From assembly GCF_013466605.1 (NCBI RefSeq), contig NZ_CP059162.1, positions 3,844,001-3,908,000 on the forward strand: 64,000 nt of DNA, in the 5' to 3' direction. Below the pieces are notes generated by a model. The model was not told where the DNA came from. It did no database searches and saw only the letters and a program-made list of their open reading frames with translations. Each line of letters opens with the position of its first letter. Position 1 is the first letter of the stretch. A program made the translations under genes and the position numbers. The stretch comes from Pseudomonas chlororaphis subsp. aurantiaca (GTDB lineage Bacteria; Pseudomonadota; Gammaproteobacteria; Pseudomonadales; Pseudomonadaceae). Of this stretch, positions 11,331 to 33,160 are shown piece by piece.

Positions 11331-11735
11331 CGGCGTCAGCACTCGGCTACACAAAAAAACCTGCACCAGCCCCCCTTTTTCAGACGCGATTGGCTTCGAA
11401 CAGCGATCTAAAGCAGTCTGCCATGCTCATCTGGCCTTTCCTTATTGAATTTACGAGCCCGCAAGTAACTCGTCGGAAGTTGCCGACGGCCAAACGTCAA
11501 TAGATGGAGATAAGGCGCGCACTTTACCTCTGCGCACCGCTCTACTTATATCTTTTGCTGCTAGAAACACTCGCCTCAAGAGTCAAATATTATGAGCCGG
11601 GCGCTTGCTATCACTTGTTATTCAACTAGGATCCAATTCGCACAGGTGAAGTCATAGTGGCTGAAATATACTCCGGCATGTTCAAGCTTATTATCAGGCC
11701 CACAACATTAGTGATTAGGTAGCATGTAAAAATTG

Positions 11736-11768
11736 AAAGCGCATACAAACTCTATGTGCCTGCGCTTT
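11736..11768. terminator. hairpin in the leader of the 335-aa gene
   Basis: AAAGCGCA (11736-11743) pairs with TGCGCTTT (11761-11768) around a 17-base loop, followed by TATG rather than a clean U-run. It could be a weak terminator isolating the RHS operon from upstream transcription. An identical copy exists in the right arm of the inverted repeat. Confidence 0.35.
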
Positions 11769-11897
11769 TATGTCCCGTACAAACACTCTAAGACAGTGAT
11801 CTTATAATTATCGATGCCATATCGATGCGGTCTCGTAGGCTATTTCCGCCTTAAGGCTACCTGTTTGTTCTTGGTAACATTTATAAAAGGAATTTAA

Positions 11898-12905
11898 ATG
11901 ACTATCGCCCATCAAAAGCCCCCTCTAACAGACTGGTTAAGCCGTTTTGAAATTGCCCTCACCTCGGCATCCCCGCAACTCTATCCCAACGCTCGCCAAC
12001 AAATTGCGGTAACCCTGACGATTCAAGCCAGGACGGGGAAAGTCATCAGCCGTCAGGAACAGGAGAGCCTCTGCCTGTCCGTCCGGAACAACACTGGCCA
12101 GTTTTCGCCGCTACCGGTAGAGGACAATGGCACGGCCCACTGGTTTGCCAGCGCTACCCGAAACAATTACTCCTACTATCCGTCGACTGCTGATCCCGCC
12201 CCGAACAAAAATGAGGAAGGCGGCACATCGGCTGGAGTGGCGGATGGCGATGTTACGTTTTTTGAGAAAACCTTCTATGTGATGAGTCGCGCCCCAGAGG
12301 GTAGTCAGGAAACGCTGTATGCGCGGGTGACGCGTCATATGGACAATGAGAGCTACGTCTACAATACCGTCGAAGACCCGAGTTTTAAGACATCCGTAGG
12401 TATCACGGCAGCGCCTATTCCACAATTCTTCGCTCCTGAGCATTACACCTTCGATCGTACCCTTGTCGGCGGTAACGGGAGCAGCGACCTGTTCATCTGG
12501 GAATACTCCCTGGCGGGTCGCAACATGCAGCTGCCGGTCGTGACCTTTCGGTCGGCCGAGATGCAACCGGCGGGGATGATCCAGTGGGCGGATCGCGACC
12601 CAAGCGAGACCCGAGCTTCGCATGTAGGCTATGCCGCACCCGGCCAATCGGAATTCCATTACAACCCCGCCATCCGATTGGGGAGCCAGTTCCAGCCGAC
12701 CCCGACAGCGGTGCGTCCGCGCAGTGGCCATATCACGATCGTGCTGCAGGGCAGCAACAACATTCCCTACGACCGTGACAGTGCCATTGGTCAGGGCGGC
12801 CCTTGCGTGATAACCGCGATCGACATGTATGGCAATGACCATCGCTTCCGGGTGCGGTTTCAAGACGGTACGCCGACAGGTCGTTTGGCACTGGAACTGT
12901 ATTAA
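11898..12905 (+). CDS. RHS partner protein (335 aa), copy 1, unknown function
   Basis: ATG at 11898 follows AAAAGGAATTTAA, a good ribosome binding site. 54 bp separate its stop from the RHS1 start, so the two are probably one operon. No signal peptide or membrane span. The protein looks all-beta: FEIALTSASPQLYPNARQQI is followed by VTLTIQA near the N-terminus, then VTFFEKTFYVMS and the C-terminal block CVITAIDMYGND with FRVRFQDG. That last block resembles the end of the 429/397/354-aa proteins (D-x-YGN then alternating hydrophobics), so all four may share an Ig-like C-terminal domain. Identical to the protein at 31790-32797. Function unknown; a chaperone, adaptor or delivery role for the RHS protein is only a guess from operon position. 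Confidence 0.85.
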   Translation: MTIAHQKPPLTDWLSRFEIALTSASPQLYPNARQQIAVTLTIQARTGKVISRQEQESLCLSVRNNTGQFSPLPVEDNGTAHWFASATRNNYSYYPSTADPAPNKNEEGGTSAGVADGDVTFFEKTFYVMSRAPEGSQETLYARVTRHMDNESYVYNTVEDPSFKTSVGITAAPIPQFFAPEHYTFDRTLVGGNGSSDLFIWEYSLAGRNMQLPVVTFRSAEMQPAGMIQWADRDPSETRASHVGYAAPGQSEFHYNPAIRLGSQFQPTPTAVRPRSGHITIVLQGSNNIPYDRDSAIGQGGPCVITAIDMYGNDHRFRVRFQDGTPTGRLALELY

Positions 12906-12959
12906 CAGTCAACTTGCCCCCCCTGATTGCCCTTCGCCATCCCCTATTGGGAGTCTGTA

Positions 12960-15900
12960 ATGAATGAGATTTCTCCTGCCTCGGCACGGCTGATCGCTGG
13001 CGGCCTGTATTCCCAAGCTGGCAACTTTCTCAGTCACGGCAATACCGGTGTGGACGCTCGCACCGGCCAGTTTACGCTGCACTTCACGCTGCCCGGCCTG
13101 CAGGCCAACAACCTCGCGGGGCCTGTCGTGACGCCGGCGCTGTCGTTCAGCCCGCTGGCGTCTCACACTGACTATGGCTTCGGCCGTGGCTGGAGCATGG
13201 AGCTTTCCCGGTTGGACCTGGCGGCGGGTAGCTTACGGCTGACAACGGGCGAGAGCTTCAGCCTCGATCGTGATAAGTCGGAGTTCTCTGACGGTGGTGA
13301 GTTGGTATTCCGTGACCAAAAGCTCAAGACCTTCCGTGTGATTCAGGAAGGCGTGGCGGGACAGCGCTTTCGTATCGAGTCCAAGGACGGCGACACCCAG
13401 TGGCTGGTGAGGCAGGATGGCGGTAGCCTGGCCCTGCCGGAGGAGGTGCGCTCACCAGAGGGGCGTCAGGCTTTCCTGTCCTGGCGGCCCCACGGCAGTG
13501 GTCAGTATGCCCTGACCGAGGTCCGGGATGAGCGGCGTGTGCTGCTGCGTCGGGACCAGTCAGAGAACGGCGATGAAGTTTACCTGCATCTCTTTCCTGA
13601 CAGCGCCCAAGCCTGCACCTTTACTCTGCAACTGAGCGGCGATCAACTGACCGCACTCATCTTGCCGGATAGGGATAGCCGCTGGACCTTTCGTTACGAC
13701 CCGCATGAAGGGCTGTTGTTTCCAATAGGTGCGACGGGGCCGCTTGGCAGTGAGGACGAAGTTCTCTATGCCACGGGGCCGGAGGGGCATCGGTTGCCAC
13801 CTGGCGCGCCGCTGGCATATTTGCCCCGGGTTACGTCTCACCGCCACAGCCCTGGTGCGGGTCAGCCGGCCATTTACCGGACTTACACCAAGCTGGGTGA
13901 CGCCAACTTCCTGGGATATGGCGCAGAGTTGCCCGGCGGCTGGCGGGATGGTGAAGAGAATCTGTATCGCACTGATGATTATCAATACAAGAGCATCGAG
14001 ACCCTGAAAGATGCGCTTGGCGCCACGCTGGCAGAGGTTGAGCGCACCTGGAATCGTTTCCACCTGCAGACCGAAGAAGTGAAGAGGCGTCAGGGTAAAA
14101 CCGTGCGGACGCTCACCACGTATGGCGACGACCCCGCGCTGAGCTGGGAACGTCAACCGGCCTGGTGTCAACTGCCGGTCAAGGGGGTCACCCGTTACGA
14201 GGGCGATCCGTCTCGAGAAGACATCACGCAGACGAGCTATGACGACTACGGCAACACGCTGACGCAGTGCCATCCCGATGGACGAACCGAGCGTTGGATC
14301 TATTACCCGGTGGGCGGCGCGGAGGGCTGTCCGGATGATGACGGCCTCTTTGTTCGCTGGCTGCAAGCACATACCCGGATGCCCGTCACACTTCCTGACG
14401 GTGAGAGCGGAGGCGCTCTGCCGACCCGGACCGACTACCGGTATGAGCGTCTGCCGCTGAGGCAGAGTGATGACCGCCCATTCCTGGTGGCTGTTTCAGA
14501 AGCCGCGGTGGTGGTGACGCCGGAGGGGGACCGCCCGCTCGGCGTCACCACTCAGCGCTATCAGACCGATGTGAACAACCCGCACTATGCTCAGATCGTG
14601 CAGGCGGTCACCACACTGAACCAGCTGGCCACCACCACCGACTATACCCACACCCTCGCCGGTACCACCTTGACGGTCGAGAGCACCGTGACCGGCCATG
14701 ACGGTACCGCCACCACCGAGAGCACGACCCGTGACAGCCTGACCGGCCTGACGATGCGCGAACGTAATGTCAATGGGGTGGAAACCGCCTATGACTACGA
14801 CAAGCTCGGACGGGTAATCCGTCGCATGGAGGCACCCGGCACCCCCTATGAAGCCAGCGCCACGTGCCGTTATGTCACGGCGGGGCGTGAACGTCTGCGA
14901 GCGGTGATGGCGGAAGAAACCGATATCACGGGCCAGCAGCGGCGGATCTACCTCGATGGTGCCGGACGGCGGGTGCGCGAGGAGCGTCGGGATGAGGACA
15001 TCACCGGAGAGGCATTCCGGGAAATCTGGCGAGGCACCTACAATCACGAAGGGCAGCTGGAGAGTGAAACCGCCCAGGACTGGCGAGCGGACCGGGACAC
15101 TCCGATCAGCCTGACCACCGAATACCGCTTTGATGCCTGGGGTCAGGTCAGCGAACTGATACGGCCGGACCGGATGATCGAACACACGCAATCTGATCCG
15201 CTGACGCTGGTCACGCAGCGTTGGCACACAAGTGCCGACGGAGAGCGCAGCGCGCAGACCGAGATCCTTCATAACAAAGCCGGCGACGTACTCAAAGTGA
15301 CCTTGCGTTCTCCCACGGGAGACACACAGCGTATTGAAGAATGGACACATGACGGTTGGCATCGGCCGATCACCCATCGGGTGACCGTGCCAGGCGAGGC
15401 ATCGGTGACGACCCAAACCCGCTACGATGCCCATGGCCGGATTCTGAGCCGGACCCTGGCGGACGGGAGCGAAGTCAACTGGGAGTATGCGGCGCACAGC
15501 GACGGCGATCACCCGATCAGCGTGACCCTCACCCCGCCGGGCGGCGACCCAGTATTACTGGGAGAGCAGACCTTCGATGGGCTGGGGCGGCAGCTGACTT
15601 GCAGTGCGGGTGGACAGCTGGACCAGTTGCACTATATCAAAGGGCAGGTGCCACCCGTCTCTCGGGAGAGTACCAGTGGCCGGATGCAGACTTACCGCTA
15701 TGAGCCGTTGCTGAACAATCGGCTGATCGGATTGACCCAGAATGATGGGAGTCCGGAAAGCACCTATCGCTACCATCCTCGCCTAACTCAACTGGTGGAA
15801 GCGCAGGGAGGACTGGGGCAATTAGCGTGGACCTACTCTGCCAGTGGTCGCCTGACCGCAGAGCACTGGACCGTAGACGGTAAACGCAACACCACCACTT

Positions 15901-17951
15901 GGCAGAATTCGTTGAACGGCTTGCTGCTGACGTTTACTGACGTCAACGGCGTTGAACATCGGACCGAGTACGATGCGCTGGGACGGCCAGACCAGCAGCA
16001 GGCTGACACGGTCACGATGCGCATGACCTACGATGCCTTCAGCCGGGTCAGCCAGATGGTGACGGAGGACACCGGCAGTGGCCAATCGCTGCAGCAGACC
16101 GTGGGGTATGACGCCTTCGGCCGCGAAGTGTCGCGCCAGTGGCTCAGCATCAGTCCGGCAGGTCGGCGTCAGCTGACCCAGACGTTGGGTTGGACGAACC
16201 TGGATCAGGTCGCCCGTCGCCGCTGGGAGGCCGACGGCCAACTGCTCAGTGAGGAATCCTATCAGTATGATTGCCGGGGACGTCTAACGGAAACCACGGC
16301 GTCCGGCCCCGAGGGGCCGGTGGACGCGCGAACCGGCAAGCGGATACGGCAACAACGCTTTACGTTGAATGCGCTGGATGGGTATGAACGGGTGGTCACG
16401 GTGTACACCGATGGAACTCAGAACGAGATGACGTTCACGTACGCGGCCGTGGCGCCAGATCGGCCGGTCAAGATCAGTCACTCCTACCCGACCCCGCGGG
16501 ACTTCACGCTGGAATACGATGCGGATGGCCGGTTGATACGCGATGGGCAAGGACGTCTGTTGCACTGGAACGCCGATGGGCAGTTAAGCCGCGCCAGTCG
16601 AGAAGATCAGGAATGTGGCTACCAATACGACCCCTTGGGGCGACTGAGTGAAGTAAAACCGAATGGCGTTGTGAAGCGCCGCTACTACCAAGGTGAACAT
16701 GTCGTCAACGAACAGGGCGCGGATGAGACGGTAACGCTGTTGCGCACCGGTTCGTCGGTGTTCGCGCAAACCCGCATCAGTCAGGCCGTCCGCGAGGTGC
16801 TGTTGACCGGAAGCGACGGCCAGGGAACGGTTCGACTGGAGGCTGGGACAGATGATACCCGCCTCGTCAGTTATACCGCGCACGGTGCCGATGCTGGCGA
16901 GGCGAATAGCCTGATAGGTTATGCCGGCGAGTCTCGTGATGCGATATCGGGGTGTTATTTGCTGGGGAGTTACCGGCTGTACGATCCGGTGTTGATGATG
17001 CTCCTGGAGCCGGACAGCGAGAGTCCATTCGGAGCGGGGGGATTGAACCGCTATGCCTATTGTGCGGGTGATCCAGTGAACCGGATTGACCCGGACGGTC
17101 ATAGTTTCTGGAAGTGGCTGATTGCCGGTGTGGGGATCGCCTTGGGCGTTATCGGGACGATAGCGTCATTCGGGGCGGCAGCCCCCGTGCTGGCGGGCGG
17201 TATCGCGGCGCTGACAGTGAGTAGCGCGCTGGCGGTGACCTCGACGGCGCTAGGGGTGCTCAGCCTTACGACGGGGGTGGCGTCAATGATTTTGGAGGCC
17301 ACGGGTGACGAGTCGGCGGCGGGTGTTCTGGGGTGGATCTCGCTAGGAACCGGCATCGCCTCCGCGGTGACCGGCTTGGCGCCGGCGGCGACCAAAGCAG
17401 CGTCCAAGCTAGGAAGAGTTGTGGGAAGGTGGAAAAATACAACTTCAGGGAAAGGCACCAGACTTAACCTTGTTGATATGAGTGTTGAAGGTGACGGATT
17501 TTTAAAATTTCGGCGTGGTTATACAGATAACTTTAGGGGGACTGGTGAAGAGGCTGTTTATCTTCATGGCAGTAAACAAGGTAGGCTACTCGTTGGGGAG
17601 GAAGCTGTAAGGCAGGGGAGATTGAGGTGGGTTACTAATTACGATAACTCTATGTTAGTAACTGGAGATGAACTCCCCGTATACATGCTTAATGAACACC
17701 GTATCGATTTATATTCAGGACGTGGGCCTGTACATTTGCTAAGTTGTTATGCCAAACGAGGGGCGGCCCAGGCTTTGGCTACGGAAATTCAAAGGCCCGT
17801 CATTGCTTACTCAAAGCACCCGATCTGGGCTAATAGCTTAGACACCATTGAAAACGTGAACTTTTCAGTTGGCGCTGATTTCAGGAAGTATGATCCACGC
17901 CGCCTTTTCTTTTCTGAGCATAAAGCCAAGCCAAGGACCTTCAACCCTTAA
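12960..17951 (+). CDS. RHS/YD-repeat polymorphic toxin 1 (1663 aa)
   Basis: Start at ATG 12960, preceded by GGGAG; an upstream TTG would add 11 residues without a ribosome binding site. No signal peptide, PAAR, VgrG or SpvB domain is visible. Residues 1-~1370 form the RHS shell, with YD-type repeats such as YDYDKLGRVIRRMEAPG, YDALGRPDQQ and YQYDPLGRLSEVKPNG. The RHS-associated core ends RLYDPVLMMLLEPDS ... GGLNRYAYCAGDPVNRIDPDGH; D-P-D-G lies at about residue 1377. Then comes a long Gly/Ala/Leu-rich membrane-like segment (about 1383-1475). The variable tip is residues ~1493-1663 and is more AT-rich than the core. It carries H1536 (YLHGS) and C1596 (VHLLSCYAKRG), a spacing and context like clan CD peptidases. 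No immunity ORF follows in the next 438 bp. Confidence 0.9.
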   Translation: MNEISPASARLIAGGLYSQAGNFLSHGNTGVDARTGQFTLHFTLPGLQANNLAGPVVTPALSFSPLASHTDYGFGRGWSMELSRLDLAAGSLRLTTGESFSLDRDKSEFSDGGELVFRDQKLKTFRVIQEGVAGQRFRIESKDGDTQWLVRQDGGSLALPEEVRSPEGRQAFLSWRPHGSGQYALTEVRDERRVLLRRDQSENGDEVYLHLFPDSAQACTFTLQLSGDQLTALILPDRDSRWTFRYDPHEGLLFPIGATGPLGSEDEVLYATGPEGHRLPPGAPLAYLPRVTSHRHSPGAGQPAIYRTYTKLGDANFLGYGAELPGGWRDGEENLYRTDDYQYKSIETLKDALGATLAEVERTWNRFHLQTEEVKRRQGKTVRTLTTYGDDPALSWERQPAWCQLPVKGVTRYEGDPSREDITQTSYDDYGNTLTQCHPDGRTERWIYYPVGGAEGCPDDDGLFVRWLQAHTRMPVTLPDGESGGALPTRTDYRYERLPLRQSDDRPFLVAVSEAAVVVTPEGDRPLGVTTQRYQTDVNNPHYAQIVQAVTTLNQLATTTDYTHTLAGTTLTVESTVTGHDGTATTESTTRDSLTGLTMRERNVNGVETAYDYDKLGRVIRRMEAPGTPYEASATCRYVTAGRERLRAVMAEETDITGQQRRIYLDGAGRRVREERRDEDITGEAFREIWRGTYNHEGQLESETAQDWRADRDTPISLTTEYRFDAWGQVSELIRPDRMIEHTQSDPLTLVTQRWHTSADGERSAQTEILHNKAGDVLKVTLRSPTGDTQRIEEWTHDGWHRPITHRVTVPGEASVTTQTRYDAHGRILSRTLADGSEVNWEYAAHSDGDHPISVTLTPPGGDPVLLGEQTFDGLGRQLTCSAGGQLDQLHYIKGQVPPVSRESTSGRMQTYRYEPLLNNRLIGLTQNDGSPESTYRYHPRLTQLVEAQGGLGQLAWTYSASGRLTAEHWTVDGKRNTTTWQNSLNGLLLTFTDVNGVEHRTEYDALGRPDQQQADTVTMRMTYDAFSRVSQMVTEDTGSGQSLQQTVGYDAFGREVSRQWLSISPAGRRQLTQTLGWTNLDQVARRRWEADGQLLSEESYQYDCRGRLTETTASGPEGPVDARTGKRIRQQRFTLNALDGYERVVTVYTDGTQNEMTFTYAAVAPDRPVKISHSYPTPRDFTLEYDADGRLIRDGQGRLLHWNADGQLSRASREDQECGYQYDPLGRLSEVKPNGVVKRRYYQGEHVVNEQGADETVTLLRTGSSVFAQTRISQAVREVLLTGSDGQGTVRLEAGTDDTRLVSYTAHGADAGEANSLIGYAGESRDAISGCYLLGSYRLYDPVLMMLLEPDSESPFGAGGLNRYAYCAGDPVNRIDPDGHSFWKWLIAGVGIALGVIGTIASFGAAAPVLAGGIAALTVSSALAVTSTALGVLSLTTGVASMILEATGDESAAGVLGWISLGTGIASAVTGLAPAATKAASKLGRVVGRWKNTTSGKGTRLNLVDMSVEGDGFLKFRRGYTDNFRGTGEEAVYLHGSKQGRLLVGEEAVRQGRLRWVTNYDNSMLVTGDELPVYMLNEHRIDLYSGRGPVHLLSCYAKRGAAQALATEIQRPVIAYSKHPIWANSLDTIENVNFSVGADFRKYDPRRLFFSEHKAKPRTFNP

Positions 17952-18005
17952 TTTTACGACGCACTTAACGAGGTAACATTTTTATTCTGCACCGGAGTAA
18001 AAAAC

Positions 18006-18043
18006 CGGGTGAATTCATCTGAATGCGAATTCACCCGATTTTA
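18006..18043 (+). terminator. intrinsic terminator after RHS1
   Basis: CGGGTGAATTC (18006-18016) pairs perfectly with GAATTCACCCG (18027-18037) around a 10-base loop and is followed by ATTTTAT. It lies 55 bp after the RHS1 stop. Confidence 0.8.
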
Positions 18044-18226
18044 TCTTCACTTTTAGATCCGGGTATTCTGTTGGTCGTGTAGTGGTCAATAAGTTATAGA
18101 TGGTTTTTGAGTCTCACTTTTCGTGCAACTGGGGCTGGCTGTAAGTCCTTTGTTGTAATTGTGGAGGTGTCTCTACTAACTGTAAGAGCAAGGTTGGACT
18201 CCCTCGCGGGGAGACACCACCTTTAT

Positions 18227-18322
18227 GCAACAAAGCAACAAAGCAACAAAGCAACAAAGCAACAAAGCAACAAAGCAACAAGGCAACAAGGCAACAAGGC
18301 AACAAGGCAACAAGGCAACAAA
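18227..18322 (+). repeat. 8-bp tandem repeat, 12 units
   Basis: Twelve uninterrupted octamers: six GCAACAAA, five GCAACAAG, one GCAACAAA. It lies 67 bp before the start of the 190-aa exported protein and after the RHS1 terminator, so it is in that gene's upstream region rather than in a coding sequence. An ORF that crosses it is a by-product of a repeat without stop codons in that frame. Confidence 0.95.
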
Positions 18323-18388
18323 ACGATAATGGACGGGAGTGTTAGCGCATAACCTCCAAACTAATGATGATAAGGAACCCTTTAAGTC

Positions 18389-18961
18389 ATGAGAAAACTA
18401 TTGACTTGCACTATGGTCGCCTCCATTGTTTTCGGCCCCAATGCTGTCGGAGCTGCGGAAGAAAAAACTGAAATTAAGACGACTCCTATAATTGAATTTT
18501 ACGGTAAGCACGGGGACAACGATTACAAATGTGAGTTCACCTTGACTTCCGGAAATCATAATTTCAAAAAAAACTCCTGCCCCAATGACGACGTTTACTC
18601 TTTCAAGATCAAAAACCCTAAAGAAGGCTATGTCATAAGGATAGAGGATAGTCCGGATTGCGACCACAGCGAACCTTGGGCGAGCTATGGCATCAGAGAT
18701 CCACACCCCCCCATGGACCCAACGCAGCGTATGAATGTCGATGCAGGATACGGCCTATCTTTCGGAAAGGAAATCGTACCTGGAATTTATGCAAGGTACC
18801 ATAAAAACAGAAACCAACTGACCGGCAAGGTTTCCTGTGTAAATGTCGTAATAAACAGCCGAGCAGAGATCGAAAAAGAGAATGAGAAAATTACAAAAAC
18901 ACAACCTGAGCAAGAGAGAGAAAGGGTGAAAGAAGCAAAGGAATATCAAAAGTCTTTATGA
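18389..18961 (+). CDS. exported four-cysteine protein 1 (190 aa), unknown function
   Basis: ATG 18389 follows GATAAGGAACCCTTTAAGTC. Residues 1-22 are a signal peptide ending VGAA. The mature part has a block shared with the proteins at 35617 and 36217: IIEFYGKHGD, Cys, 15 residues, Cys (KCEFTLTSG ... NSCPND), then YSFKIKNPKEGY, then two more Cys (SPDCDHSE and VSCVN). The four cysteines would suit two disulfides in the periplasm. The last ~45 residues are a Glu/Lys-rich helical tail not present in the paralogues. Not recognised as a described family. It could be a periplasmic protector or a secreted factor; neither is shown. Confidence 0.75.
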   Translation: MRKLLTCTMVASIVFGPNAVGAAEEKTEIKTTPIIEFYGKHGDNDYKCEFTLTSGNHNFKKNSCPNDDVYSFKIKNPKEGYVIRIEDSPDCDHSEPWASYGIRDPHPPMDPTQRMNVDAGYGLSFGKEIVPGIYARYHKNRNQLTGKVSCVNVVINSRAEIEKENEKITKTQPEQERERVKEAKEYQKSL

Positions 18962-18965
18962 ACTG

Positions 18966-24500: not shown

Positions 24501-26587
24501 TGATTGTAGGTGCCTCGCCAGATTTCCCGGAATGCCTCTCCGGTGATGTCCTCATCCCGACGCTCCTCGCGCACCCGCCGTCCGGCACCATCGAGGTAGA
24601 TCCGCCGCTGCTGGCCCGTGATATCGGTTTCTTCCGCCATCACCGCTCGCAGACGTTCACGCCCCGCCGTGACATAACGGCACGTGGCGCTGGCTTCATA
24701 GGGGGTGCCGGGTGCCTCCATGCGACGGATTACCCGTCCGAGCTTGTCGTAGTCATAGGCGGTTTCCACCCCATTGACATTACGTTCGCGCATCGTCAGG
24801 CCGGTCAGGCTGTCACGGGTCGTGCTCTCGGTGGTGGCGGTACCGTCATGGCCGGTCACGGTGCTCTCGACCGTCAAGGTGGTACCGGCGAGGGTGTGGG
24901 TATAGTCGGTGGTGGTGGCCAGCTGGTTCAGTGTGGTGACCGCCTGCACGATCTGAGCATAGTGCGGGTTGTTCACATCGGTCTGATAGCGCTGAGTGGT
25001 GACGCCGAGCGGGCGGTCCCCCTCCGGCGTCACCACCACCGCGGCTTCTGAAACAGCCACCAGGAATGGGCGGTCATCACTCTGCCTCAGCGGCAGACGC
25101 TCATACCGGTAGTCGGTCCGGGTCGGCAGAGCGCCTCCGCTCTCACCGTCAGGAAGTGTGACGGGCATCCGGGTATGTGCTTGCAGCCAGCGAACAAAGA
25201 GGCCGTCATCATCCGGACAGCCCTCCGCGCCGCCCACCGGGTAATAGATCCAACGCTCGGTTCGTCCATCGGGATGGCACTGCGTCAGCGTGTTGCCGTA
25301 GTCGTCATAGCTCGTCTGCGTGATGTCTTCTCGAGACGGATCGCCCTCGTAACGGGTGACCCCCTTGACCGGCAGTTGACACCAGGCCGGTTGACGTTCC
25401 CAGCTCAGCGCGGGGTCGTCGCCATACGTGGTGAGCGTCCGCACGGTTTTACCCTGACGCCTCTTCACTTCTTCGGTCTGCAGGTGGAAACGATTCCAGG
25501 TGCGCTCAACCTCTGCCAGCGTGGCGCCAAGCGCATCTTTCAGGGTCTCGATGCTCTTGTATTGATAATCATCAGTGCGATACAGATTCTCTTCACCATC
25601 CCGCCAGCCGCCGGGCAACTCTGCGCCATATCCCAGGAAGTTGGCGTCACCCAGCTTGGTGTAAGTCCGGTAAATGGCCGGCTGACCCGCACCAGGGCTG
25701 TGGCGGTGAGACGTAACCCGGGGCAAATATGCCAGCGGCGCGCCAGGTGGCAACCGATGCCCCTCCGGCCCCGTGGCATAGAGAACTTCGTCCTCACTGC
25801 CAAGCGGCCCCGTCGCACCTATTGGAAACAACAGCCCTTCATGCGGGTCGTAACGAAAGGTCCAGCGGCTATCCCTATCCGGCAAGATGAGTGCGGTCAG
25901 TTGATCGCCGCTCAGTTGCAGAGTAAAGGTGCAGGCTTGGGCGCTGTCAGGAAAGAGATGCAGGTAAACTTCATCGCCGTTCTCTGACTGGTCCCGACGC
26001 AGCAGCACACGCCGCTCATCCCGGACCTCGGTCAGGGCATACTGACCACTGCCGTGGGGCCGCCAGGACAGGAAAGCCTGACGCCCCTCTGGTGAGCGCA
26101 CCTCCTCCGGCAGGGCCAGGCTACCGCCATCCTGCCTCACCAGCCACTGGGTGTCGCCGTCCTTGGACTCGATACGAAAGCGCTGTCCCGCCACGCCTTC
26201 CTGAATCACACGGAAGGTCTTGAGCTTTTGGTCACGGAATACCAACTCACCACCGTCAGAGAACTCCGACTTATCACGATCGAGGCTGAAGCTCTCGCCC
26301 GTTGTCAGCCGTAAGCTACCCGCCGCCAGGTCCAACCGGGAAAGCTCCATGCTCCAGCCACGGCCGAAGCCATAGTCAGTGTGAGACGCCAGCGGGCTGA
26401 ACGACAGCGCCGGCGTCACGACAGGCCCCGCGAGGTCGTTGGCCTGCAGCCCGGGCAGTGTGAAGTGAAGCGTAAACTGACCGGTGCGGGCATCCACACC
26501 GGTGTTGCCGTGACTGAGGAAGTTGCCAGCTTGGGAATACAGGCCGCCGGCGATCAGCCGCGCCAGGGCAGGAGAAATCTCGTTCAT
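21551..26587 (-). CDS. RHS/YD-repeat polymorphic toxin 2 (1678 aa)
   Basis: ATG at 26587-26585, preceded by GGGAG on the minus strand. Residues ~45-1490 are identical or nearly so to RHS1, including the core end and the hydrophobic segment. The first ~45 residues differ slightly from RHS1 and RHS3 (ALARL for ASARL, LQANDLAG for LQANNLAG), so it belongs to a separate 5' lineage. The tip, about residues 1493-1678, is unique. It has a strand then a His-Gly (DIIVISGTHGRPSG, H1579) and a second strand then Cys (AHVILGYCYGIND, C1647), consistent with a clan CD-like protease fold. It lacks a full 335-aa partner: only 34 bp of that gene remain upstream. No immunity gene follows. Confidence 0.9.
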   Translation of the reverse strand: MNEISPALARLIAGGLYSQAGNFLSHGNTGVDARTGQFTLHFTLPGLQANDLAGPVVTPALSFSPLASHTDYGFGRGWSMELSRLDLAAGSLRLTTGESFSLDRDKSEFSDGGELVFRDQKLKTFRVIQEGVAGQRFRIESKDGDTQWLVRQDGGSLALPEEVRSPEGRQAFLSWRPHGSGQYALTEVRDERRVLLRRDQSENGDEVYLHLFPDSAQACTFTLQLSGDQLTALILPDRDSRWTFRYDPHEGLLFPIGATGPLGSEDEVLYATGPEGHRLPPGAPLAYLPRVTSHRHSPGAGQPAIYRTYTKLGDANFLGYGAELPGGWRDGEENLYRTDDYQYKSIETLKDALGATLAEVERTWNRFHLQTEEVKRRQGKTVRTLTTYGDDPALSWERQPAWCQLPVKGVTRYEGDPSREDITQTSYDDYGNTLTQCHPDGRTERWIYYPVGGAEGCPDDDGLFVRWLQAHTRMPVTLPDGESGGALPTRTDYRYERLPLRQSDDRPFLVAVSEAAVVVTPEGDRPLGVTTQRYQTDVNNPHYAQIVQAVTTLNQLATTTDYTHTLAGTTLTVESTVTGHDGTATTESTTRDSLTGLTMRERNVNGVETAYDYDKLGRVIRRMEAPGTPYEASATCRYVTAGRERLRAVMAEETDITGQQRRIYLDGAGRRVREERRDEDITGEAFREIWRGTYNHEGQLESETAQDWRADRDTPISLTTEYRFDAWGQVSELIRPDRMIEHTQSDPLTLVTQRWHTSADGERSAQTEILHNKAGDVLKVTLRSPTGDTQRIEEWTHDGWHRPITHRVTVPGEASVTTQTRYDAHGRILSRTLADGSEVNWEYAAHSDGDHPISVTLTPPGGDPVLLGEQTFDGLGRQLTCSAGGQLDQLHYIKGQVPPVSRESTSGRMQTYRYEPLLNNRLIGLTQNDGSPESTYRYHPRLTQLVEAQGGLGQLAWTYSASGRLTAEHWTVDGKRNTTTWQNSLNGLLLTFTDVNGVEHRTEYDALGRPDQQQADTVTMRMTYDAFSRVSQMVTEDTGSGQSLQQTVGYDAFGREVSRQWLSISPAGRRQLTQTLGWTNLDQVARRRWEADGQLLSEESYQYDCRGRLTETTASGPEGPVDARTGKRIRQQRFTLNALDGYERVVTVYTDGTQNEMTFTYAAVAPDRPVKISHSYPTPRDFTLEYDADGRLIRDGQGRLLHWNADGQLSRASREDQECGYQYDPLGRLSEVKPNGVVKRRYYQGEHVVNEQGADETVTLLRTGSSVFAQTRISQAVREVLLTGSDGQGTVRLEAGTDDTRLVSYTAHGADAGEANSLIGYAGESRDAISGCYLLGSYRLYDPVLMMLLEPDSESPFGAGGLNRYAYCAGDPVNRIDPDGHSFWKWLIAGVGIALGVIGTIASFGAAAPVLAGGIAALTVSSALAVTSTALGVLSLTTGVASMILEATGDESAAGVLGWISLGTGIASAVTGLAPAATKAASKLGRVVGGWKRKLVVNSGDLTPRGPAYFSDLAPPPTAALKPSTSSSHWKAVHDAGADQFIFGSDTIVDSFGIGTPLEFFNKRPSITQRDIIVISGTHGRPSGNNWTTSGMRDPSLIDGGFYRQDRTFHHGQIGGRVKVVDADGMTDIRFSEYLSNKKAHVILGYCYGINDEALRFYSNSKVFTSYIPGDIQRPTFN
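22112..26587 (-). repeat. third copy of the RHS core repeat
   Basis: Tandem (same orientation) to the RHS3 core and inverted relative to RHS1. Up to the tip junction it matches RHS1 better than RHS3: both read SALAVTSTALGVLSL where RHS3 has GALTVTSTVLGVVSL. At the 5' end RHS1 and RHS3 match each other instead. This mosaic points to past exchange between the copies. Confidence 0.85.
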
Positions 26588-26647
26588 TACGGACTCCCAA
26601 TAGGGGGTGGGTAGCGAAGGGCCATCATTGGCTGGCCAAGTGGACTG

Positions 26648-26681
26648 TTAATACAGTTCCAGTGCCAAGCGACCTGTCGGC
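26648..26681 (-). pseudogene. last codons of a third 335-aa partner gene
   Basis: Read leftward it encodes PTGRLALELY and a stop, the same end as the two intact 335-aa genes, then a leader like that of RHS1. The upstream part is gone and replaced by the sequence after the RHS3 stop (26735). It marks the junction of a tandem duplication or deletion. Confidence 0.85.
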
Positions 26682-26734
26682 ATGCTGTCTCTAATTCCAA
26701 TTCAAATTGAAACGATGACTGCGAACTACGCAAG

Positions 26735-29700
26735 TTATATGACTGGCCTAGGGAAGTAATAACTCATTCCAGCCACTTCGAATCCACCAGTTGGATTTCC
26801 AATCCACGAAACTTTATCCTGTTTAACTAGGTTTCCGAAAATATCGAAGGCGTCTAATTGCCAGACTTCGCCCAACAAATCCGGTGATTTTGCATAAATG
26901 CTATTAGCCTGTGAATACGATACAACAGGGCGTCTAAGGACGTTTGCCACATCCTGTGCGGCGCCAGAGCGCCCAGCATAGCAAGCCATCAATACCATCG
27001 GTTGATCATCGGGAATCTGTAATTGGCTGACCCTAGGCAATATATCGTTATGTGCAACTTCAGTAGCGGTTCGCCAATTTCCGGTTGAATCCATGAGTTG
27101 GCCACTTGGATTTCCATGAGTTCGATAAGCCACGATTTTTTGTCCATAAAGGTCATCAAAAAAAGCAACATCGGGTTGCCCAGGAGGGCGATATATCGTC
27201 TCCGGACCACCTAAAGCTCCCGACGATTGGCTTGCCTTCCTTGACACATTCCCATGTTGTTTCCACCGTCCGACGAAGCGGCTGGCTTTTTGTGCGGCTT
27301 TGGTCGCCGCCGGTGCCAAGCCGGTCACTGCGGAGGCGATGCCGGTTCCCAACGAGATCCACCCCAGAATACCCGCCGCCGACTCGTCACCCGTGGCCTC
27401 CAGAATCAGCGACGCCACCCCCGTCGTAAGACTGACCACCCCCAGCACCGTCGAGGTCACCGTCAGCGCGCCGCTCACGGTCAGCGCCGCGATACCGCCC
27501 GCCAGCACGGGGGCTGCCGCACCAAATGACGCGATCGTCCCGATAACGCCCAAGGCGATCCCCACACCGGCAATCAGCCACTTCCAGAAACTATGACCGT
27601 CCGGGTCAATCCGGTTCACTGGATCACCCGCACAATAGGCATAGCGGTTCAATCCCCCCGCTCCGAATGGACTCTCGCTGTCCGGCTCCAGGAGCATCAT
27701 CAACACCGGATCGTACAGCCGGTAACTCCCCAGCAAATAACACCCCGATATCGCATCACGAGACTCGCCGGCATAACCTATCAGGCTATTCGCCTCGCCA
27801 GCATCGGCACCGTGCGCGGTATAACTGACGAGGCGGGTATCATCTGTCCCAGCCTCCAGTCGAACCGTTCCCTGGCCGTCGCTTCCGGTCAACAGCACCT
27901 CGCGGACGGCCTGACTGATGCGGGTTTGCGCGAACACCGACGAACCGGTGCGCAACAGCGTTACCGTCTCATCCGCGCCCTGTTCGTTGACGACATGTTC
28001 ACCTTGGTAGTAGCGGCGCTTCACAACGCCATTCGGTTTTACTTCACTCAGTCGCCCCAAGGGGTCGTATTGGTAGCCACATTCCTGATCTTCTCGACTG
28101 GCGCGGCTTAACTGCCCATCGGCGTTCCAGTGCAACAGACGTCCTTGCCCATCGCGTATCAACCGGCCATCCGCATCGTATTCCAGCGTGAAGTCCCGCG
28201 GGGTCGGGTAGGAGTGACTGATCTTGACCGGCCGATCTGGCGCCACGGCCGCGTACGTGAACGTCATCTCGTTCTGAGTTCCATCGGTGTACACCGTGAC
28301 CACCCGTTCATACCCATCCAGCGCATTCAACGTAAAGCGTTGTTGCCGTATCCGCTTGCCGGTTCGCGCGTCCACCGGCCCCTCGGGGCCGGACGCCGTG
28401 GTTTCCGTTAGACGTCCCCGGCAATCATACTGATAGGATTCCTCACTGAGCAGTTGGCCGTCGGCCTCCCAGCGGCGACGGGCGACCTGATCCAGGTTCG
28501 TCCAACCCAACGTCTGGGTCAGCTGACGCCGACCTGCCGGACTGATGCTGAGCCACTGGCGCGACACTTCGCGGCCGAAGGCGTCATACCCCACGGTCTG
28601 CTGCAGCGATTGGCCACTGCCGGTGTCCTCCGTCACCATCTGGCTGACCCGGCTGAAGGCATCGTAGGTCATGCGCATCGTGACCGTGTCAGCCTGCTGC
28701 TGGTCTGGCCGTCCCAGCGCATCGTACTCGGTCCGATGTTCAACGCCGTTGACGTCAGTAAACGTCAGCAGCAAGCCGTTCAACGAATTCTGCCAAGTGG
28801 TGGTGTTGCGTTTACCGTCTACGGTCCAGTGCTCTGCGGTCAGGCGACCACTGGCAGAGTAGGTCCACGCTAATTGCCCCAGTCCTCCCTGCGCTTCCAC
28901 CAGTTGAGTTAGGCGAGGATGGTAGCGATAGGTGCTTTCCGGACTCCCATCATTCTGGGTCAATCCGATCAGCCGATTGTTCAGCAACGGCTCATAGCGG
29001 TAAGTCTGCATCCGGCCACTGGTACTCTCCCGAGAGACGGGTGGCACCTGCCCTTTGATATAGTGCAACTGGTCCAGCTGTCCACCCGCACTGCAAGTCA
29101 GCTGCCGCCCCAGCCCATCGAAGGTCTGCTCTCCCAGTAATACTGGGTCGCCGCCCGGCGGGGTGAGGGTCACGCTGATCGGGTGATCGCCGTCGCTGTG
29201 CGCCGCATACTCCCAGTTGACTTCGCTCCCGTCCGCCAGGGTCCGGCTCAGAATCCGGCCATGGGCATCGTAGCGGGTTTGGGTCGTCACCGATGCCTCG
29301 CCTGGCACGGTCACCCGATGGGTGATCGGCCGATGCCAACCGTCATGTGTCCATTCTTCAATACGCTGTGTGTCTCCCGTGGGAGAACGCAAGGTCACTT
29401 TGAGTACGTCGCCGGCTTTGTTATGAAGGATCTCGGTCTGCGCGCTGCGCTCTCCGTCGGCACTTGTGTGCCAACGCTGCGTGACCAGCGTCAGCGGATC
29501 AGATTGCGTGTGTTCGATCATCCGGTCCGGCCGTATCAGTTCGCTGACCTGACCCCAGGCATCAAAGCGGTATTCGGTGGTCAGGCTGATCGGAGTGTCC
29601 CGGTCCGCTCGCCAGTCCTGGGCGGTTTCACTCTCCAGCTGCCCTTCGTGATTGTAGGTGCCTCGCCAGATTTCCCGGAATGCCTCTCCGGTGATGTCCT

Positions 29701-31735
29701 CATCCCGACGCTCCTCGCGCACCCGCCGTCCGGCACCATCGAGGTAGATCCGCCGCTGCTGGCCCGTGATATCGGTTTCTTCCGCCATCACCGCTCGCAG
29801 ACGTTCACGCCCCGCCGTGACATAACGGCACGTGGCGCTGGCTTCATAGGGGGTGCCGGGTGCCTCCATGCGACGGATTACCCGTCCGAGCTTGTCGTAG
29901 TCATAGGCGGTTTCCACCCCATTGACATTACGTTCGCGCATCGTCAGGCCGGTCAGGCTGTCACGGGTCGTGCTCTCGGTGGTGGCGGTACCGTCATGGC
30001 CGGTCACGGTGCTCTCGACCGTCAAGGTGGTACCGGCGAGGGTGTGGGTATAGTCGGTGGTGGTGGCCAGCTGGTTCAGTGTGGTGACCGCCTGCACGAT
30101 CTGAGCATAGTGCGGGTTGTTCACATCGGTCTGATAGCGCTGAGTGGTGACGCCGAGCGGGCGGTCCCCCTCCGGCGTCACCACCACCGCGGCTTCTGAA
30201 ACAGCCACCAGGAATGGGCGGTCATCACTCTGCCTCAGCGGCAGACGCTCATACCGGTAGTCGGTCCGGGTCGGCAGAGCGCCTCCGCTCTCACCGTCAG
30301 GAAGTGTGACGGGCATCCGGGTATGTGCTTGCAGCCAGCGAACAAAGAGGCCGTCATCATCCGGACAGCCCTCCGCGCCGCCCACCGGGTAATAGATCCA
30401 ACGCTCGGTTCGTCCATCGGGATGGCACTGCGTCAGCGTGTTGCCGTAGTCGTCATAGCTCGTCTGCGTGATGTCTTCTCGAGACGGATCGCCCTCGTAA
30501 CGGGTGACCCCCTTGACCGGCAGTTGACACCAGGCCGGTTGACGTTCCCAGCTCAGCGCGGGGTCGTCGCCATACGTGGTGAGCGTCCGCACGGTTTTAC
30601 CCTGACGCCTCTTCACTTCTTCGGTCTGCAGGTGGAAACGATTCCAGGTGCGCTCAACCTCTGCCAGCGTGGCGCCAAGCGCATCTTTCAGGGTCTCGAT
30701 GCTCTTGTATTGATAATCATCAGTGCGATACAGATTCTCTTCACCATCCCGCCAGCCGCCGGGCAACTCTGCGCCATATCCCAGGAAGTTGGCGTCACCC
30801 AGCTTGGTGTAAGTCCGGTAAATGGCCGGCTGACCCGCACCAGGGCTGTGGCGGTGAGACGTAACCCGGGGCAAATATGCCAGCGGCGCGCCAGGTGGCA
30901 ACCGATGCCCCTCCGGCCCCGTGGCATAGAGAACTTCGTCCTCACTGCCAAGCGGCCCCGTCGCACCTATTGGAAACAACAGCCCTTCATGCGGGTCGTA
31001 ACGAAAGGTCCAGCGGCTATCCCTATCCGGCAAGATGAGTGCGGTCAGTTGATCGCCGCTCAGTTGCAGAGTAAAGGTGCAGGCTTGGGCGCTGTCAGGA
31101 AAGAGATGCAGGTAAACTTCATCGCCGTTCTCTGACTGGTCCCGACGCAGCAGCACACGCCGCTCATCCCGGACCTCGGTCAGGGCATACTGACCACTGC
31201 CGTGGGGCCGCCAGGACAGGAAAGCCTGACGCCCCTCTGGTGAGCGCACCTCCTCCGGCAGGGCCAGGCTACCGCCATCCTGCCTCACCAGCCACTGGGT
31301 GTCGCCGTCCTTGGACTCGATACGAAAGCGCTGTCCCGCCACGCCTTCCTGAATCACACGGAAGGTCTTGAGCTTTTGGTCACGGAATACCAACTCACCA
31401 CCGTCAGAGAACTCCGACTTATCACGATCGAGGCTGAAGCTCTCGCCCGTTGTCAGCCGTAAGCTACCCGCCGCCAGGTCCAACCGGGAAAGCTCCATGC
31501 TCCAGCCACGGCCGAAGCCATAGTCAGTGTGAGACGCCAGCGGGCTGAACGACAGCGCCGGCGTCACGACAGGCCCCGCGAGGTTGTTGGCCTGCAGGCC
31601 GGGCAGCGTGAAGTGCAGCGTAAACTGGCCGGTGCGAGCGTCCACACCGGTATTGCCGTGACTGAGAAAGTTGCCAGCTTGGGAATACAGGCCGCCAGCG
31701 ATCAGCCGTGCCGAGGCAGGAGAAATCTCATTCAT
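26735..31735 (-). CDS. RHS/YD-repeat polymorphic toxin 3 (1666 aa)
   Basis: Start ATG 31735-31733 with GGGAG upstream; an earlier TTG at 31768 is not supported by a ribosome binding site. The N-terminus and shell match RHS1. The last ~80 residues before the tip have several substitutions (GALTVTSTVLGVVSL, KAAQKASRFVGRWK). The tip, about residues 1497-1666, has H1540 (IVAYRTHGNPSG) and C1585 (PMVLMACYAGRSGAAQDVAN), 45 residues apart. The stretch after the Cys parallels the RHS1 tip (CYA-K/G-R, GAAQ, RPV then a Ser), so tips 1 and 3 are diverged relatives. Preceded by an intact 335-aa partner 54 bp upstream. RHS2 begins 147 bp after its stop, leaving no room for an immunity gene. Confidence 0.9.
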   Translation of the reverse strand: MNEISPASARLIAGGLYSQAGNFLSHGNTGVDARTGQFTLHFTLPGLQANNLAGPVVTPALSFSPLASHTDYGFGRGWSMELSRLDLAAGSLRLTTGESFSLDRDKSEFSDGGELVFRDQKLKTFRVIQEGVAGQRFRIESKDGDTQWLVRQDGGSLALPEEVRSPEGRQAFLSWRPHGSGQYALTEVRDERRVLLRRDQSENGDEVYLHLFPDSAQACTFTLQLSGDQLTALILPDRDSRWTFRYDPHEGLLFPIGATGPLGSEDEVLYATGPEGHRLPPGAPLAYLPRVTSHRHSPGAGQPAIYRTYTKLGDANFLGYGAELPGGWRDGEENLYRTDDYQYKSIETLKDALGATLAEVERTWNRFHLQTEEVKRRQGKTVRTLTTYGDDPALSWERQPAWCQLPVKGVTRYEGDPSREDITQTSYDDYGNTLTQCHPDGRTERWIYYPVGGAEGCPDDDGLFVRWLQAHTRMPVTLPDGESGGALPTRTDYRYERLPLRQSDDRPFLVAVSEAAVVVTPEGDRPLGVTTQRYQTDVNNPHYAQIVQAVTTLNQLATTTDYTHTLAGTTLTVESTVTGHDGTATTESTTRDSLTGLTMRERNVNGVETAYDYDKLGRVIRRMEAPGTPYEASATCRYVTAGRERLRAVMAEETDITGQQRRIYLDGAGRRVREERRDEDITGEAFREIWRGTYNHEGQLESETAQDWRADRDTPISLTTEYRFDAWGQVSELIRPDRMIEHTQSDPLTLVTQRWHTSADGERSAQTEILHNKAGDVLKVTLRSPTGDTQRIEEWTHDGWHRPITHRVTVPGEASVTTQTRYDAHGRILSRTLADGSEVNWEYAAHSDGDHPISVTLTPPGGDPVLLGEQTFDGLGRQLTCSAGGQLDQLHYIKGQVPPVSRESTSGRMQTYRYEPLLNNRLIGLTQNDGSPESTYRYHPRLTQLVEAQGGLGQLAWTYSASGRLTAEHWTVDGKRNTTTWQNSLNGLLLTFTDVNGVEHRTEYDALGRPDQQQADTVTMRMTYDAFSRVSQMVTEDTGSGQSLQQTVGYDAFGREVSRQWLSISPAGRRQLTQTLGWTNLDQVARRRWEADGQLLSEESYQYDCRGRLTETTASGPEGPVDARTGKRIRQQRFTLNALDGYERVVTVYTDGTQNEMTFTYAAVAPDRPVKISHSYPTPRDFTLEYDADGRLIRDGQGRLLHWNADGQLSRASREDQECGYQYDPLGRLSEVKPNGVVKRRYYQGEHVVNEQGADETVTLLRTGSSVFAQTRISQAVREVLLTGSDGQGTVRLEAGTDDTRLVSYTAHGADAGEANSLIGYAGESRDAISGCYLLGSYRLYDPVLMMLLEPDSESPFGAGGLNRYAYCAGDPVNRIDPDGHSFWKWLIAGVGIALGVIGTIASFGAAAPVLAGGIAALTVSGALTVTSTVLGVVSLTTGVASLILEATGDESAAGILGWISLGTGIASAVTGLAPAATKAAQKASRFVGRWKQHGNVSRKASQSSGALGGPETIYRPPGQPDVAFFDDLYGQKIVAYRTHGNPSGQLMDSTGNWRTATEVAHNDILPRVSQLQIPDDQPMVLMACYAGRSGAAQDVANVLRRPVVSYSQANSIYAKSPDLLGEVWQLDAFDIFGNLVKQDKVSWIGNPTGGFEVAGMSYYFPRPVI

Positions 31736-33160
31736 TACAGACTCCCAATAGGGGATGGCGAAGGGCAATCAGGGGGGGCAAGTTGACTGTTAATACAGTT
31801 CCAGTGCCAAACGACCTGTCGGCGTACCGTCTTGAAACCGCACCCGGAAGCGATGGTCATTGCCATACATGTCGATCGCGGTTATCACGCAAGGGCCGCC
31901 CTGACCAATGGCACTGTCACGGTCGTAGGGAATGTTGTTGCTGCCCTGCAGCACGATCGTGATATGGCCACTGCGCGGACGCACCGCTGTCGGGGTCGGC
32001 TGGAACTGGCTCCCCAATCGGATGGCGGGGTTGTAATGGAATTCCGATTGGCCGGGTGCGGCATAGCCTACATGCGAAGCTCGGGTCTCGCTTGGGTCGC
32101 GATCCGCCCACTGGATCATCCCCGCCGGTTGCATCTCGGCCGACCGAAAGGTCACGACCGGCAGCTGCATGTTGCGACCCGCCAGGGAGTATTCCCAGAT
32201 GAACAGGTCGCTGCTCCCGTTACCGCCGACAAGGGTACGATCGAAGGTGTAATGCTCAGGAGCGAAGAATTGTGGAATAGGCGCTGCCGTGATACCTACG
32301 GATGTCTTAAAACTCGGGTCTTCGACGGTATTGTAGACGTAGCTCTCATTGTCCATATGACGCGTCACCCGCGCATACAGCGTTTCCTGACTACCCTCTG
32401 GGGCGCGACTCATCACATAGAAGGTTTTCTCAAAAAACGTAACATCGCCATCCGCCACTCCAGCCGATGTGCCGCCTTCCTCATTTTTGTTCGGGGCGGG
32501 ATCAGCAGTCGACGGATAGTAGGAGTAATTGTTTCGGGTAGCGCTGGCAAACCAGTGGGCCGTGCCATTGTCCTCTACCGGTAGCGGCGAAAACTGGCCA
32601 GTGTTGTTCCGGACGGACAGGCAGAGGCTCTCCTGTTCCTGACGGCTGATGACTTTCCCCGTCCTGGCTTGAATCGTCAGGGTTACCGCAATTTGTTGGC
32701 GAGCGTTGGGATAGAGTTGCGGGGATGCCGAGGTGAGGGCAATTTCAAAACGGCTTAACCAGTCTGTTAGAGGGGGCTTTTGATGGGCGATAGTCATTTA
32801 AATTCCTTTTATAAATGTTACCAAGAACAAACAGGTAGCCTTAAGGCGGAAATAGCCTACGAGACCGCATCGATATGGCATCGATAATTATAAGATCACT
32901 GTCTTAGAGTGTTTGTACGGGACATAAAAGCGCAGGCACATAGAGTTTGTATGCGCTTTCAATTTTTACATGCTACCTAATCACTAATGTTGTGGGCCTG
33001 ATAATAAGCTTGAACATGCCGGAGTATATTTCAGCCACTATGACTTCACCTGTGCGAATTGGATCCTAGTTGAATAACAAGTGATAGCAAGCGCCCGGCT
33101 CATAATATTTAACTCTTGGGACGAGCCTTTCTAGCAGTAAACGATATAAGAAAATATTGA
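27262..33160 (-). repeat. right arm of the ~5.9-kb inverted repeat
   Basis: Reverse complement of 11545-17432: leader, 335-aa gene and RHS core. At the outer edge both arms still read CTTATATC-x-TTT-x-CTGCTAGAAA with scattered mismatches before similarity is lost. Confidence 0.9.
31790..32797 (-). CDS. RHS partner protein (335 aa), copy 2
   Basis: Encodes the same 335 residues as 11898-12905 and has the same upstream AAAAGGAATTTAA site and 54-bp gap to its RHS gene (RHS3). The protein is probably all-beta with no export signal; see copy 1 for the visible blocks. Complete identity over the gene while the outer edges of the repeat have drifted suggests recent duplication or gene conversion. 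It is the only full-length partner for the tandem RHS3-RHS2 pair, so it might serve both. Confidence 0.85.
   Translation of the reverse strand: MTIAHQKPPLTDWLSRFEIALTSASPQLYPNARQQIAVTLTIQARTGKVISRQEQESLCLSVRNNTGQFSPLPVEDNGTAHWFASATRNNYSYYPSTADPAPNKNEEGGTSAGVADGDVTFFEKTFYVMSRAPEGSQETLYARVTRHMDNESYVYNTVEDPSFKTSVGITAAPIPQFFAPEHYTFDRTLVGGNGSSDLFIWEYSLAGRNMQLPVVTFRSAEMQPAGMIQWADRDPSETRASHVGYAAPGQSEFHYNPAIRLGSQFQPTPTAVRPRSGHITIVLQGSNNIPYDRDSAIGQGGPCVITAIDMYGNDHRFRVRFQDGTPTGRLALELY

What the first reader, a model, noticed from the sequence alone, without database searches (positions are those of the whole stretch)
11545..33160. Inverted, almost identical RHS toxin genes could swap C-terminal tips by inversion
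RHS1 (+) faces RHS2 and RHS3 (both -). From about residue 45 to 1490 the three are almost identical, then each has its own tip. Recombination between RHS1 and RHS2 would invert about 17.4-22.1 kb and place the RHS2 tip behind the RHS1 promoter and 335-aa partner, and the reverse. Recombination between RHS1 and RHS3 would invert about 17.4-27.3 kb. The copies already look mosaic: RHS1 matches RHS3 at the 5' end but RHS2 just before the tip. This could act as a simple tip-switching system without a dedicated recombinase.
Basis: partly seen in the sequence, partly recalled or inferred. Interest (0 to 1): 0.8.

Follow-up and report, generated by a model that had tools for sequence, protein, structure and literature searches.

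The report
Inverted RHS toxin genes sharing core
A Pseudomonas genome carries three large toxin-like genes, one facing the other two, whose bodies have been kept identical by DNA recombination while each keeps its own tip; similar facing gene pairs in two related genomes have flipped in the past, but a working switch in this strain is not shown.

Summary
Observation confirmed. All three copies are identical over 4,051 nt; R1=R3 from 11585 to 17161, R1=R2 from 13111 to 17426. The ends are diverged, and 0 of 20,000 permutations give such an empty gap: the shared block was homogenised by recombination. Tips are modular: AT-rich, and the R1 tip is 57% identical to a Photorhabdus tip on a very different core.

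Inversion is partly supported. Among nine Pseudomonas genomes with another, divergent RHS pair, two related ones (G018, G313) have the interior flipped relative to C-halves: 14 of 14 comparisons with the other seven are discordant, 21 of 21 among the seven concordant. Both have N-halves 99% identical. So inversion through shared RHS cores has probably happened in the genus.

In the window no flip is shown. R1xR3 would exchange tips between identical partners and 313-nt upstream regions; only R1xR2 changes context. All three genes are full-length, so no tip is obviously silent. Rhs-Rhs recombination is already published. A new variant of a known kind, on a 41-kb island.

The parts
11585..11897 (+). 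upstream region of partner 1, identical to that of partner 3
   Evidence: no difference R1/R3 from 11585 on
11898..12905 (+). 335-aa partner gene 1; no Pfam family
   Evidence: relatives lie upstream of RHS genes on the same strand in 23 of 32 Pseudomonas genomes with a match
12960..17951 (+). RHS1, 1663 aa, cocoon-type RHS protein
   Evidence: PF05593 87.5 bits, TIGR03696 59.5 bits
13111..17161 (+). tract identical in all three copies (copy in R1)
17162..17436 (+). hydrophobic pre-tip segment: identical in R1 and R2 up to 17426, 20 of 240 nt different in R3
17437..17951 (+). R1 tip, 45% GC; H and C motifs like the R3 tip
21551..26587 (-). RHS2, 1678 aa
21551..22110 (-). R2 tip, Tox-HDC family
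   Evidence: PF15656 85.9 bits against cut-off 21
22121..26436 (-). R2 tract identical to R1 13111-17426
26588..26734 (-). 147-nt gap behind R3 with about 34 nt of a partner gene's 3' end ahead of R2
26735..31735 (-). RHS3, 1666 aa
26735..27260 (-). R3 tip, 47% GC, H52/C97 motif
27534..33110 (-). R3 tract, partner and upstream region identical to R1 11585-17161
31790..32797 (-). 335-aa partner gene 3, protein identical to partner 1

Best explanation
Three paralogous RHS genes on a 41-kb integrated island encode single-chain cocoon proteins that should cut off and carry a C-terminal tip. Shown: the ~4-kb core is kept identical in the three copies by recombination, while tips and short flanking stretches stay distinct. 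Inferred: the recombination is ordinary homologous recombination (RecA type), mostly gene conversion; because R1 faces R2 and R3, crossovers will now and then invert the piece between them (R1xR2 exchanges tips between a partner-linked and a second-in-line position; R1xR3 exchanges tips between equal contexts), and R2xR3 will delete or duplicate a tip. The result is a store of tips that is shuffled at random and sorted by selection rather than a dedicated switch.
For: Zero differences over 4051 nt in three copies between diverged ends. Inverted divergent RHS pairs in the genus: 3 of 16 measured are homogenised, with N-halves 99-100% and C-halves 53-54% identical. Flipped interior in G018 and G313 against seven genomes, 14 of 14 comparisons, with 21 of 21 concordant among the seven and gene-level matches. 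Where an outer flank matches strongly (over 3000 bits), it goes with the C-halves in 10 of 10 of these comparisons. Tips move between cores: R1 tip 57% to P0028, whose core is 20-40% identical in most windows. Recombination between rhs copies has been observed in C. rodentium and Salmonella (PMC3072379, PMC3967940).
Against: No alternative configuration of this locus was seen. The identity could stem from recent duplication with replaced ends, or be sharpened by assembly polishing. In the flip test only one outer flank matches strongly per comparison; four weak flank matches (416-502 bits, with G292 and G116) lie in the orientation not expected; interior orthologues are only 27-34% identical. 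The flipped state is one event in one clade at a different locus, in a different RHS subfamily and a divergent, not convergent, arrangement. G367 is homogenised but not flipped.
Confidence: 0.72

Rival explanations
1. Adaptive tip switch without a dedicated recombinase: inversion between R1 and R2 (and R3) is frequent enough that a clonal population holds several core-tip configurations, and this pays off.
For: Convergent inverted copies with 4.3-5.6 kb of perfect identity; the inferred flip in G018/G313; R2 lies in a different context from R1 and R3.
Against: R1 and R3 contexts are identical for 313 nt upstream; all three frames are complete; no measurement of frequency; similar inverted pairs are unhomogenised in 13 of 16 loci.
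Confidence: 0.15
2. Recent duplication: R1, R2 and R3 arose lately from one gene, and R2's 5' end and R3's tip region were then replaced from diverged donors, with no exchange between the copies.
For: Also gives zero differences in the middle; R3's tip comes with a pre-tip stretch of its own (20 of 240 nt different); R2 sits at an abrupt junction behind R3.
Against: Needs two or more separate replacements that each end inside an RHS frame, which is itself homologous recombination; concerted N-halves in three other loci, each alike within its genome but under 80% between loci, make repeated homogenisation the simpler general rule.
Confidence: 0.25
3. Assembly or polishing artefact: the orientation of the piece between R1 and R3, or the exact identity, was set by the assembler.
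For: Repeats of 4-6 kb in a single-contig assembly whose reads could not be seen.
Against: Tract-limited identity with ends kept distinct is hard to get from polishing; three other loci in other assemblies show the same pattern.
Confidence: 0.08

Closest known systems
Rhs C-terminal tip displacement (Jackson et al. 2009, PMC2935791; abstract, outline and passages seen)
   Same: core and tips evolve apart; tips are replaced by homologous recombination through the core
   Different: there tips are displaced into arrays of fragments; here all three tips are on full-length genes and two of the copies face the third
Main-orphan rhs rearrangement in Salmonella LT2 (Koskiniemi et al. 2014, PMC3967940; abstract and passages seen)
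   Same: recombination through a shared core stretch changes the tip in use in part of the population
   Different: there a 522-bp, 95% identical direct repeat, a fragment tip and immunity genes; here 4.3-5.6 kb perfect inverted repeats, no fragment tip, no certain immunity gene
rhs-rhs recombination in Citrobacter rodentium (PMC3072379; passages seen)
   Same: near-identical rhs elements recombined within a species and moved sequence between loci
   Different: reported as a double crossover giving a translocation, not an inversion
TcB-TcC (BC) cocoon of Tc toxins (PMC7861908, PMC8765631; passages seen)
   Same: RHS cocoon proteins with a self-cleavage motif and an exchangeable C-terminal tip; many relatives of R1 are split into two genes near residue 860, some with several C-half genes
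   Different: no SpvB domain in R1-R3, and no Tc chain appears among the 13 solved relatives of the profile

Membership tests
RHS/YD polymorphic toxin | RHS repeats and the RHS-associated core domain | tested here: met
   PF05593 87.5 bits (cut-off 22) and TIGR03696 59.5 bits (cut-off 32.5) for R1, and the like for R2 and R3; profile matches solved Rhs cocoons, best 8h8a E 4.5e-45
RHS/YD polymorphic toxin | PxxxxDPxG self-cleavage motif before a variable C-terminus | tested here: met
   PVNRIDPDG in R1; motif as given in PMC8765631 and PMC7861908. Cleavage itself not tested
RHS/YD polymorphic toxin | variable tip on a conserved core | tested here: met
   R1-R3 pre-tip and core 100% in most windows, tips 18-37%
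T6SS-type Rhs effector | N-terminal PAAR domain | tested here: not met
   no PAAR family found in R1, R2 or R3 at E 0.01; the conserved RHS part starts near residue 16
Tc toxin B subunit | SpvB domain | tested here: not met
   not found in R1-R3; present elsewhere in the genome at 2890106-2890969
Tc toxin | TcA gene close by | tested here: not met
   own-genome search for PF18276 finds two pieces of one 2222-aa frame near 2.891 Mb, about 0.96 Mb from R1
Antibacterial toxin-immunity pair | immunity gene directly behind each tip | tested here: inconclusive
   147 nt behind R3, then R2; a 190-aa ORF 437 nt behind R1 has no Pfam family; not tested for function
Tox-HDC (PF15656) | family match over cut-off with H, D/N, C motifs | tested here: met
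   R2 tip only, 85.9 bits; R1 and R3 tips do not match the family
Caspase-like (clan CD) fold | matching fold in R3 tip | tested here: inconclusive
Site-specific inversion system (shufflon, Hin type) | short crossover sites with an adjacent dedicated recombinase | tested here: inconclusive
   repeats are 4-6 kb of coding DNA; the one integrase found is at 45989-47182, about 13 kb outside; not all ORFs were scanned
Orphan tip array | tip fragments without core or start | tested here: not met
   all three tips are on complete frames; such fragments do occur in Stenotrophomonas relatives L123, L148, L149

The most novel reading that the evidence does not exclude
Facing, full-length RHS genes with a recombination-homogenised core form a recombinase-free inversion system: crossover between R1 and R2 or R3 keeps several core-tip configurations in one population, and the same device has been used repeatedly in Pseudomonas, leaving a fixed flip in the G018/G313 lineage.
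Probability: 0.25. Interest if true: 0.75.

Novelty: new variant of a known kind. Interest (0 to 1): 0.5.

Why it matters
Rhs tips are known to be swapped by recombination with direct repeats or fragments. If inverted full-length copies do it by inversion, a cell can exchange tips without losing any, reversibly and without a special enzyme. The natural flip in two Pseudomonas genomes gives a first comparative sign, and the window, with 4.3-5.6 kb of perfect inverted identity, is a locus where the rate can be measured directly with long reads.

Tried and rejected
Same-species comparison: not possible with what is held; the cluster of this core in the protein collection has 3 members on one contig of 6953033 bases, this genome, and the nearest DNA matches in 94 other genomes are short pieces of 66-94% identity. 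The first genome-contig scan found no relative; a second with an alignment gave 73 loci, of which I measured 38, L112-L149.

R2 tip fold: model of pLDDT 40 from a two-row alignment, not used. A common fold of all three tips is therefore not claimed. R1 and R3 tips are related (46% over 46 aa); R2 is not joined to them by sequence.

Promoter and terminator scan of 17900-34400: 10 promoter-like sites against 9.1 expected, 11 terminator-like against 14.6; one weak promoter-like match ahead of R2 (26651-26624) and no listed terminator in the R3-R2 gap. No conclusion drawn.

Partner paralogy: the 335-aa partner does not align with the 397-aa protein (best E 0.46); the 397- and 388-aa proteins do align with each other (33%). 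An IS5-type transposase remnant that I read by eye at 20886-21161 (-) has no Pfam match and is not claimed.

Plasmids: 41 of 72,556 records hold relatives, all under 60% identity; no near-identical mobile copy.

First frame error: one search used a wrong frame for R1 and R3; its profiles are discarded and replaced. In one search the left gene of L091 (G313) is frame-shifted, so L091 gave no usable row; one search repeated the test with tblastx.

Dropped rows: I left out 13 of 41 genomes; the recount gives 33 of 41 with both genes on one contig, of which 16 under 600 nt apart, 11 at 2-6 kb, this genome 41.1 kb, five at 44 kb to 2 Mb. Of the inverted pairs visible I fetched 16; five more (G009, G160, G181, G205, G319) were not fetched. 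One search scored only two candidates per genome and its list was cut. One search used hand-typed coordinates from the lists, so its counts are lower bounds.

Literature: nine searches listed no paper whose title or shown abstract describes inversion between facing rhs genes; I saw passages of eight papers and no paper in full.

Full report
What is there. The window is base 3844001-3908000 of a 6.95-Mb single-contig genome. The genus is Pseudomonas: two genomes marked 'same genus' (G328, G348) have contigs of the same lengths as named P. frederiksbergensis and P. graminis records. Three RHS genes lie in it: R1 (+), R2 and R3 (-). R1 and R3 each follow a 335-aa partner; R2 follows R3 after 147 nt that hold about 34 nt of the 3' end of another partner copy.

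Identity map. R1 and R3 are identical from 11585 to 17161, R1 and R2 from 13111 to 17426, all three over 4051 nt. At the 5' end R2 differs from R1 in 14 of 151 coding nt (11 synonymous, 3 not), and before the tip R3 differs in 20 of 240 nt. Such old, mostly silent differences on both sides of a block with none mean that the block was homogenised later than the ends parted. 0 of 20,000 permutations give the gap. This is shown for the assembly as held; the reads were not available.

Tips. The cores have 62% GC, the tips 45-47%. R2's tip is Tox-HDC, a family that Zhang et al. describe as typically without immunity genes and probably aimed at eukaryotes (PMC3482391, passages). R1 and R3 tips are related to each other over a short stretch and share an H and a C motif and GAAQ with their relatives (15 rows; 46% over 46 aa). 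The R3 tip model is confident over about 100 residues; the best structural rows are cysteine proteases of the caspase type, but scores are middling and the Foldseek search found nothing at E 0.001. Two relatives from P. carnis carry an F-box domain in the precomputed table (P0005, P0006). A eukaryote-directed role is thus likely, not shown. R1's tip is 57% identical over 160 aa to that of a Photorhabdus RHS protein whose core matches at 20-40% in most windows; a Burkholderia ubonensis protein matches R1 at 78-93% in most of the C-half of the core but 35-49% in the first 400 residues, with an unrelated tip. So tips, and core segments too, move between lineages.

What recombination would do. R1xR2 would invert the piece between about 17.4 and 22.1 kb and swap those two tips, moving tip 2 behind partner 1 and tip 1 behind R3. 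R1xR3 would invert about 17.2-27.5 kb; as partner and 313 nt upstream are the same, each tip keeps the same near context. R2xR3, direct repeats, would delete or duplicate 5148 nt. These outcomes follow from the sequence; none was observed.

Does it happen in nature? In 398 Pseudomonas genomes searched, 130 have an RHS match at E 1e-100. I fetched 16 loci with two RHS genes back to back and one direct pair. In 3 of the 16 (L080, L091, L096) the N-half is 99-100% identical between the two genes while the C-half is 53-54%; between the eight loci compared no N-half involving these three passed 80%. So homogenisation of inverted RHS copies recurs. I then asked whether the DNA between the two genes keeps its orientation relative to the C-halves. 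In one search, 62 of 120 locus pairs passed the thresholds: 53 of 53 without L080 were concordant and 9 of 9 with L080 discordant. With outer flanks and tblastx for nine genomes (36 pairs), all 14 pairs between G018 or G313 and the seven others were discordant, all 21 among the seven concordant, and G018 and G313 agreed with each other. In the 10 discordant pairs with a strong flank match the flank went with the C-halves. Gene by gene, the large interior gene that precedes the left RHS gene in G314 and G363 precedes the right one in G018, on the other strand, while RHS genes and right-flank genes keep their places. The simplest reading is one inversion in the G018/G313 lineage with ends in the RHS N-halves. 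Against it: only one flank matches strongly in each pair, four weak flank matches with G292 and G116 point the other way, the interior matches are 27-34% identical, one 24% match in G018-G363 crosses zones, and G367 is homogenised but not flipped.

Other layouts in the family. Many relatives are split into two genes near residue 860, some with two C-half genes behind one N-half gene; P. farsensis has two C-half genes 97.4% identical over 1554 nt in direct order, and two P. entomophila contigs contain a perfect 1269-nt direct repeat reaching both of their ends; Stenotrophomonas loci carry extra C-terminal fragments behind a full gene (38 loci measured). The window is the facing, full-length variant.

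Setting. The RHS genes lie in a 41-kb insertion between an Asp-hydroxylase gene and an ABC-F gene. In 33 of 41 genomes with the hydroxylase (this one included) both genes are on one contig; in 16 they are under 600 nt apart, in 11 at 2-6 kb, in this genome 41.1 kb, in five 44 kb or more. An integrase gene ends at 47182 and a decayed copy of its 3' end lies at 6399-6649.

What is known. C-terminal displacement (PMC2935791), main-orphan recombination in Salmonella (PMC3967940) and rhs-rhs exchange in C. rodentium (PMC3072379) establish the principle (abstracts or passages seen). The word inversion does not occur in the first two as held. New here are perfect facing full-length copies and the comparative sign of a flip in relatives. 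I file it as a new variant of a known kind.

Noticed in passing
window 6399-47182: 41-kb island between an Asp-hydroxylase and an ABC-F gene, with VapE-like primase, S24 repressor, integrase and an integrase remnant at the other end; GC drops from 64% to 50% at its left edge.
   Followed up: partly
L080 (G018) and L091 (G313): Interior between two inverted RHS genes flipped relative to C-halves and one outer flank, compared with seven other Pseudomonas genomes.
   Followed up: yes
genome C1:285923-291594: Repeat matches of a 753-aa and a 1559-aa RHS frame recur at a constant 3659-nt spacing with equal scores: a second, direct, near-identical RHS pair in the same genome.
   Followed up: no
genome C1:2869763-2906535: A Tc-type locus (TcA-binding and SpvB domains near 2.89 Mb) with several short frames matching the end of the R1 core at 46-48% nearby.
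   Followed up: no
window 19425-20618 and 34321-35487: 397- and 388-aa proteins, 33% identical to each other, on either side of R2-R3; no Pfam family.
   Followed up: partly
window 18227-18321: Short tandem array of CAACAAAG-like units between R1 and the 190-aa ORF.
   Followed up: no
P0031: A domain related to the R1 tip lies in the middle of a 2764-aa protein that also has Tox-PLDMTX and Stv domains.
   Followed up: no
L130, L131: P. entomophila contigs of 5.8 and 3.7 kb that begin and end with the same perfect 1269-nt repeat of RHS C-half genes, probably an array broken by assembly.
   Followed up: no
R1 residues about 1383-1490: A glycine- and alanine-rich hydrophobic stretch between the cleavage motif and the tip, kept across relatives with unlike tips; it would be released together with the tip.
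   Followed up: no
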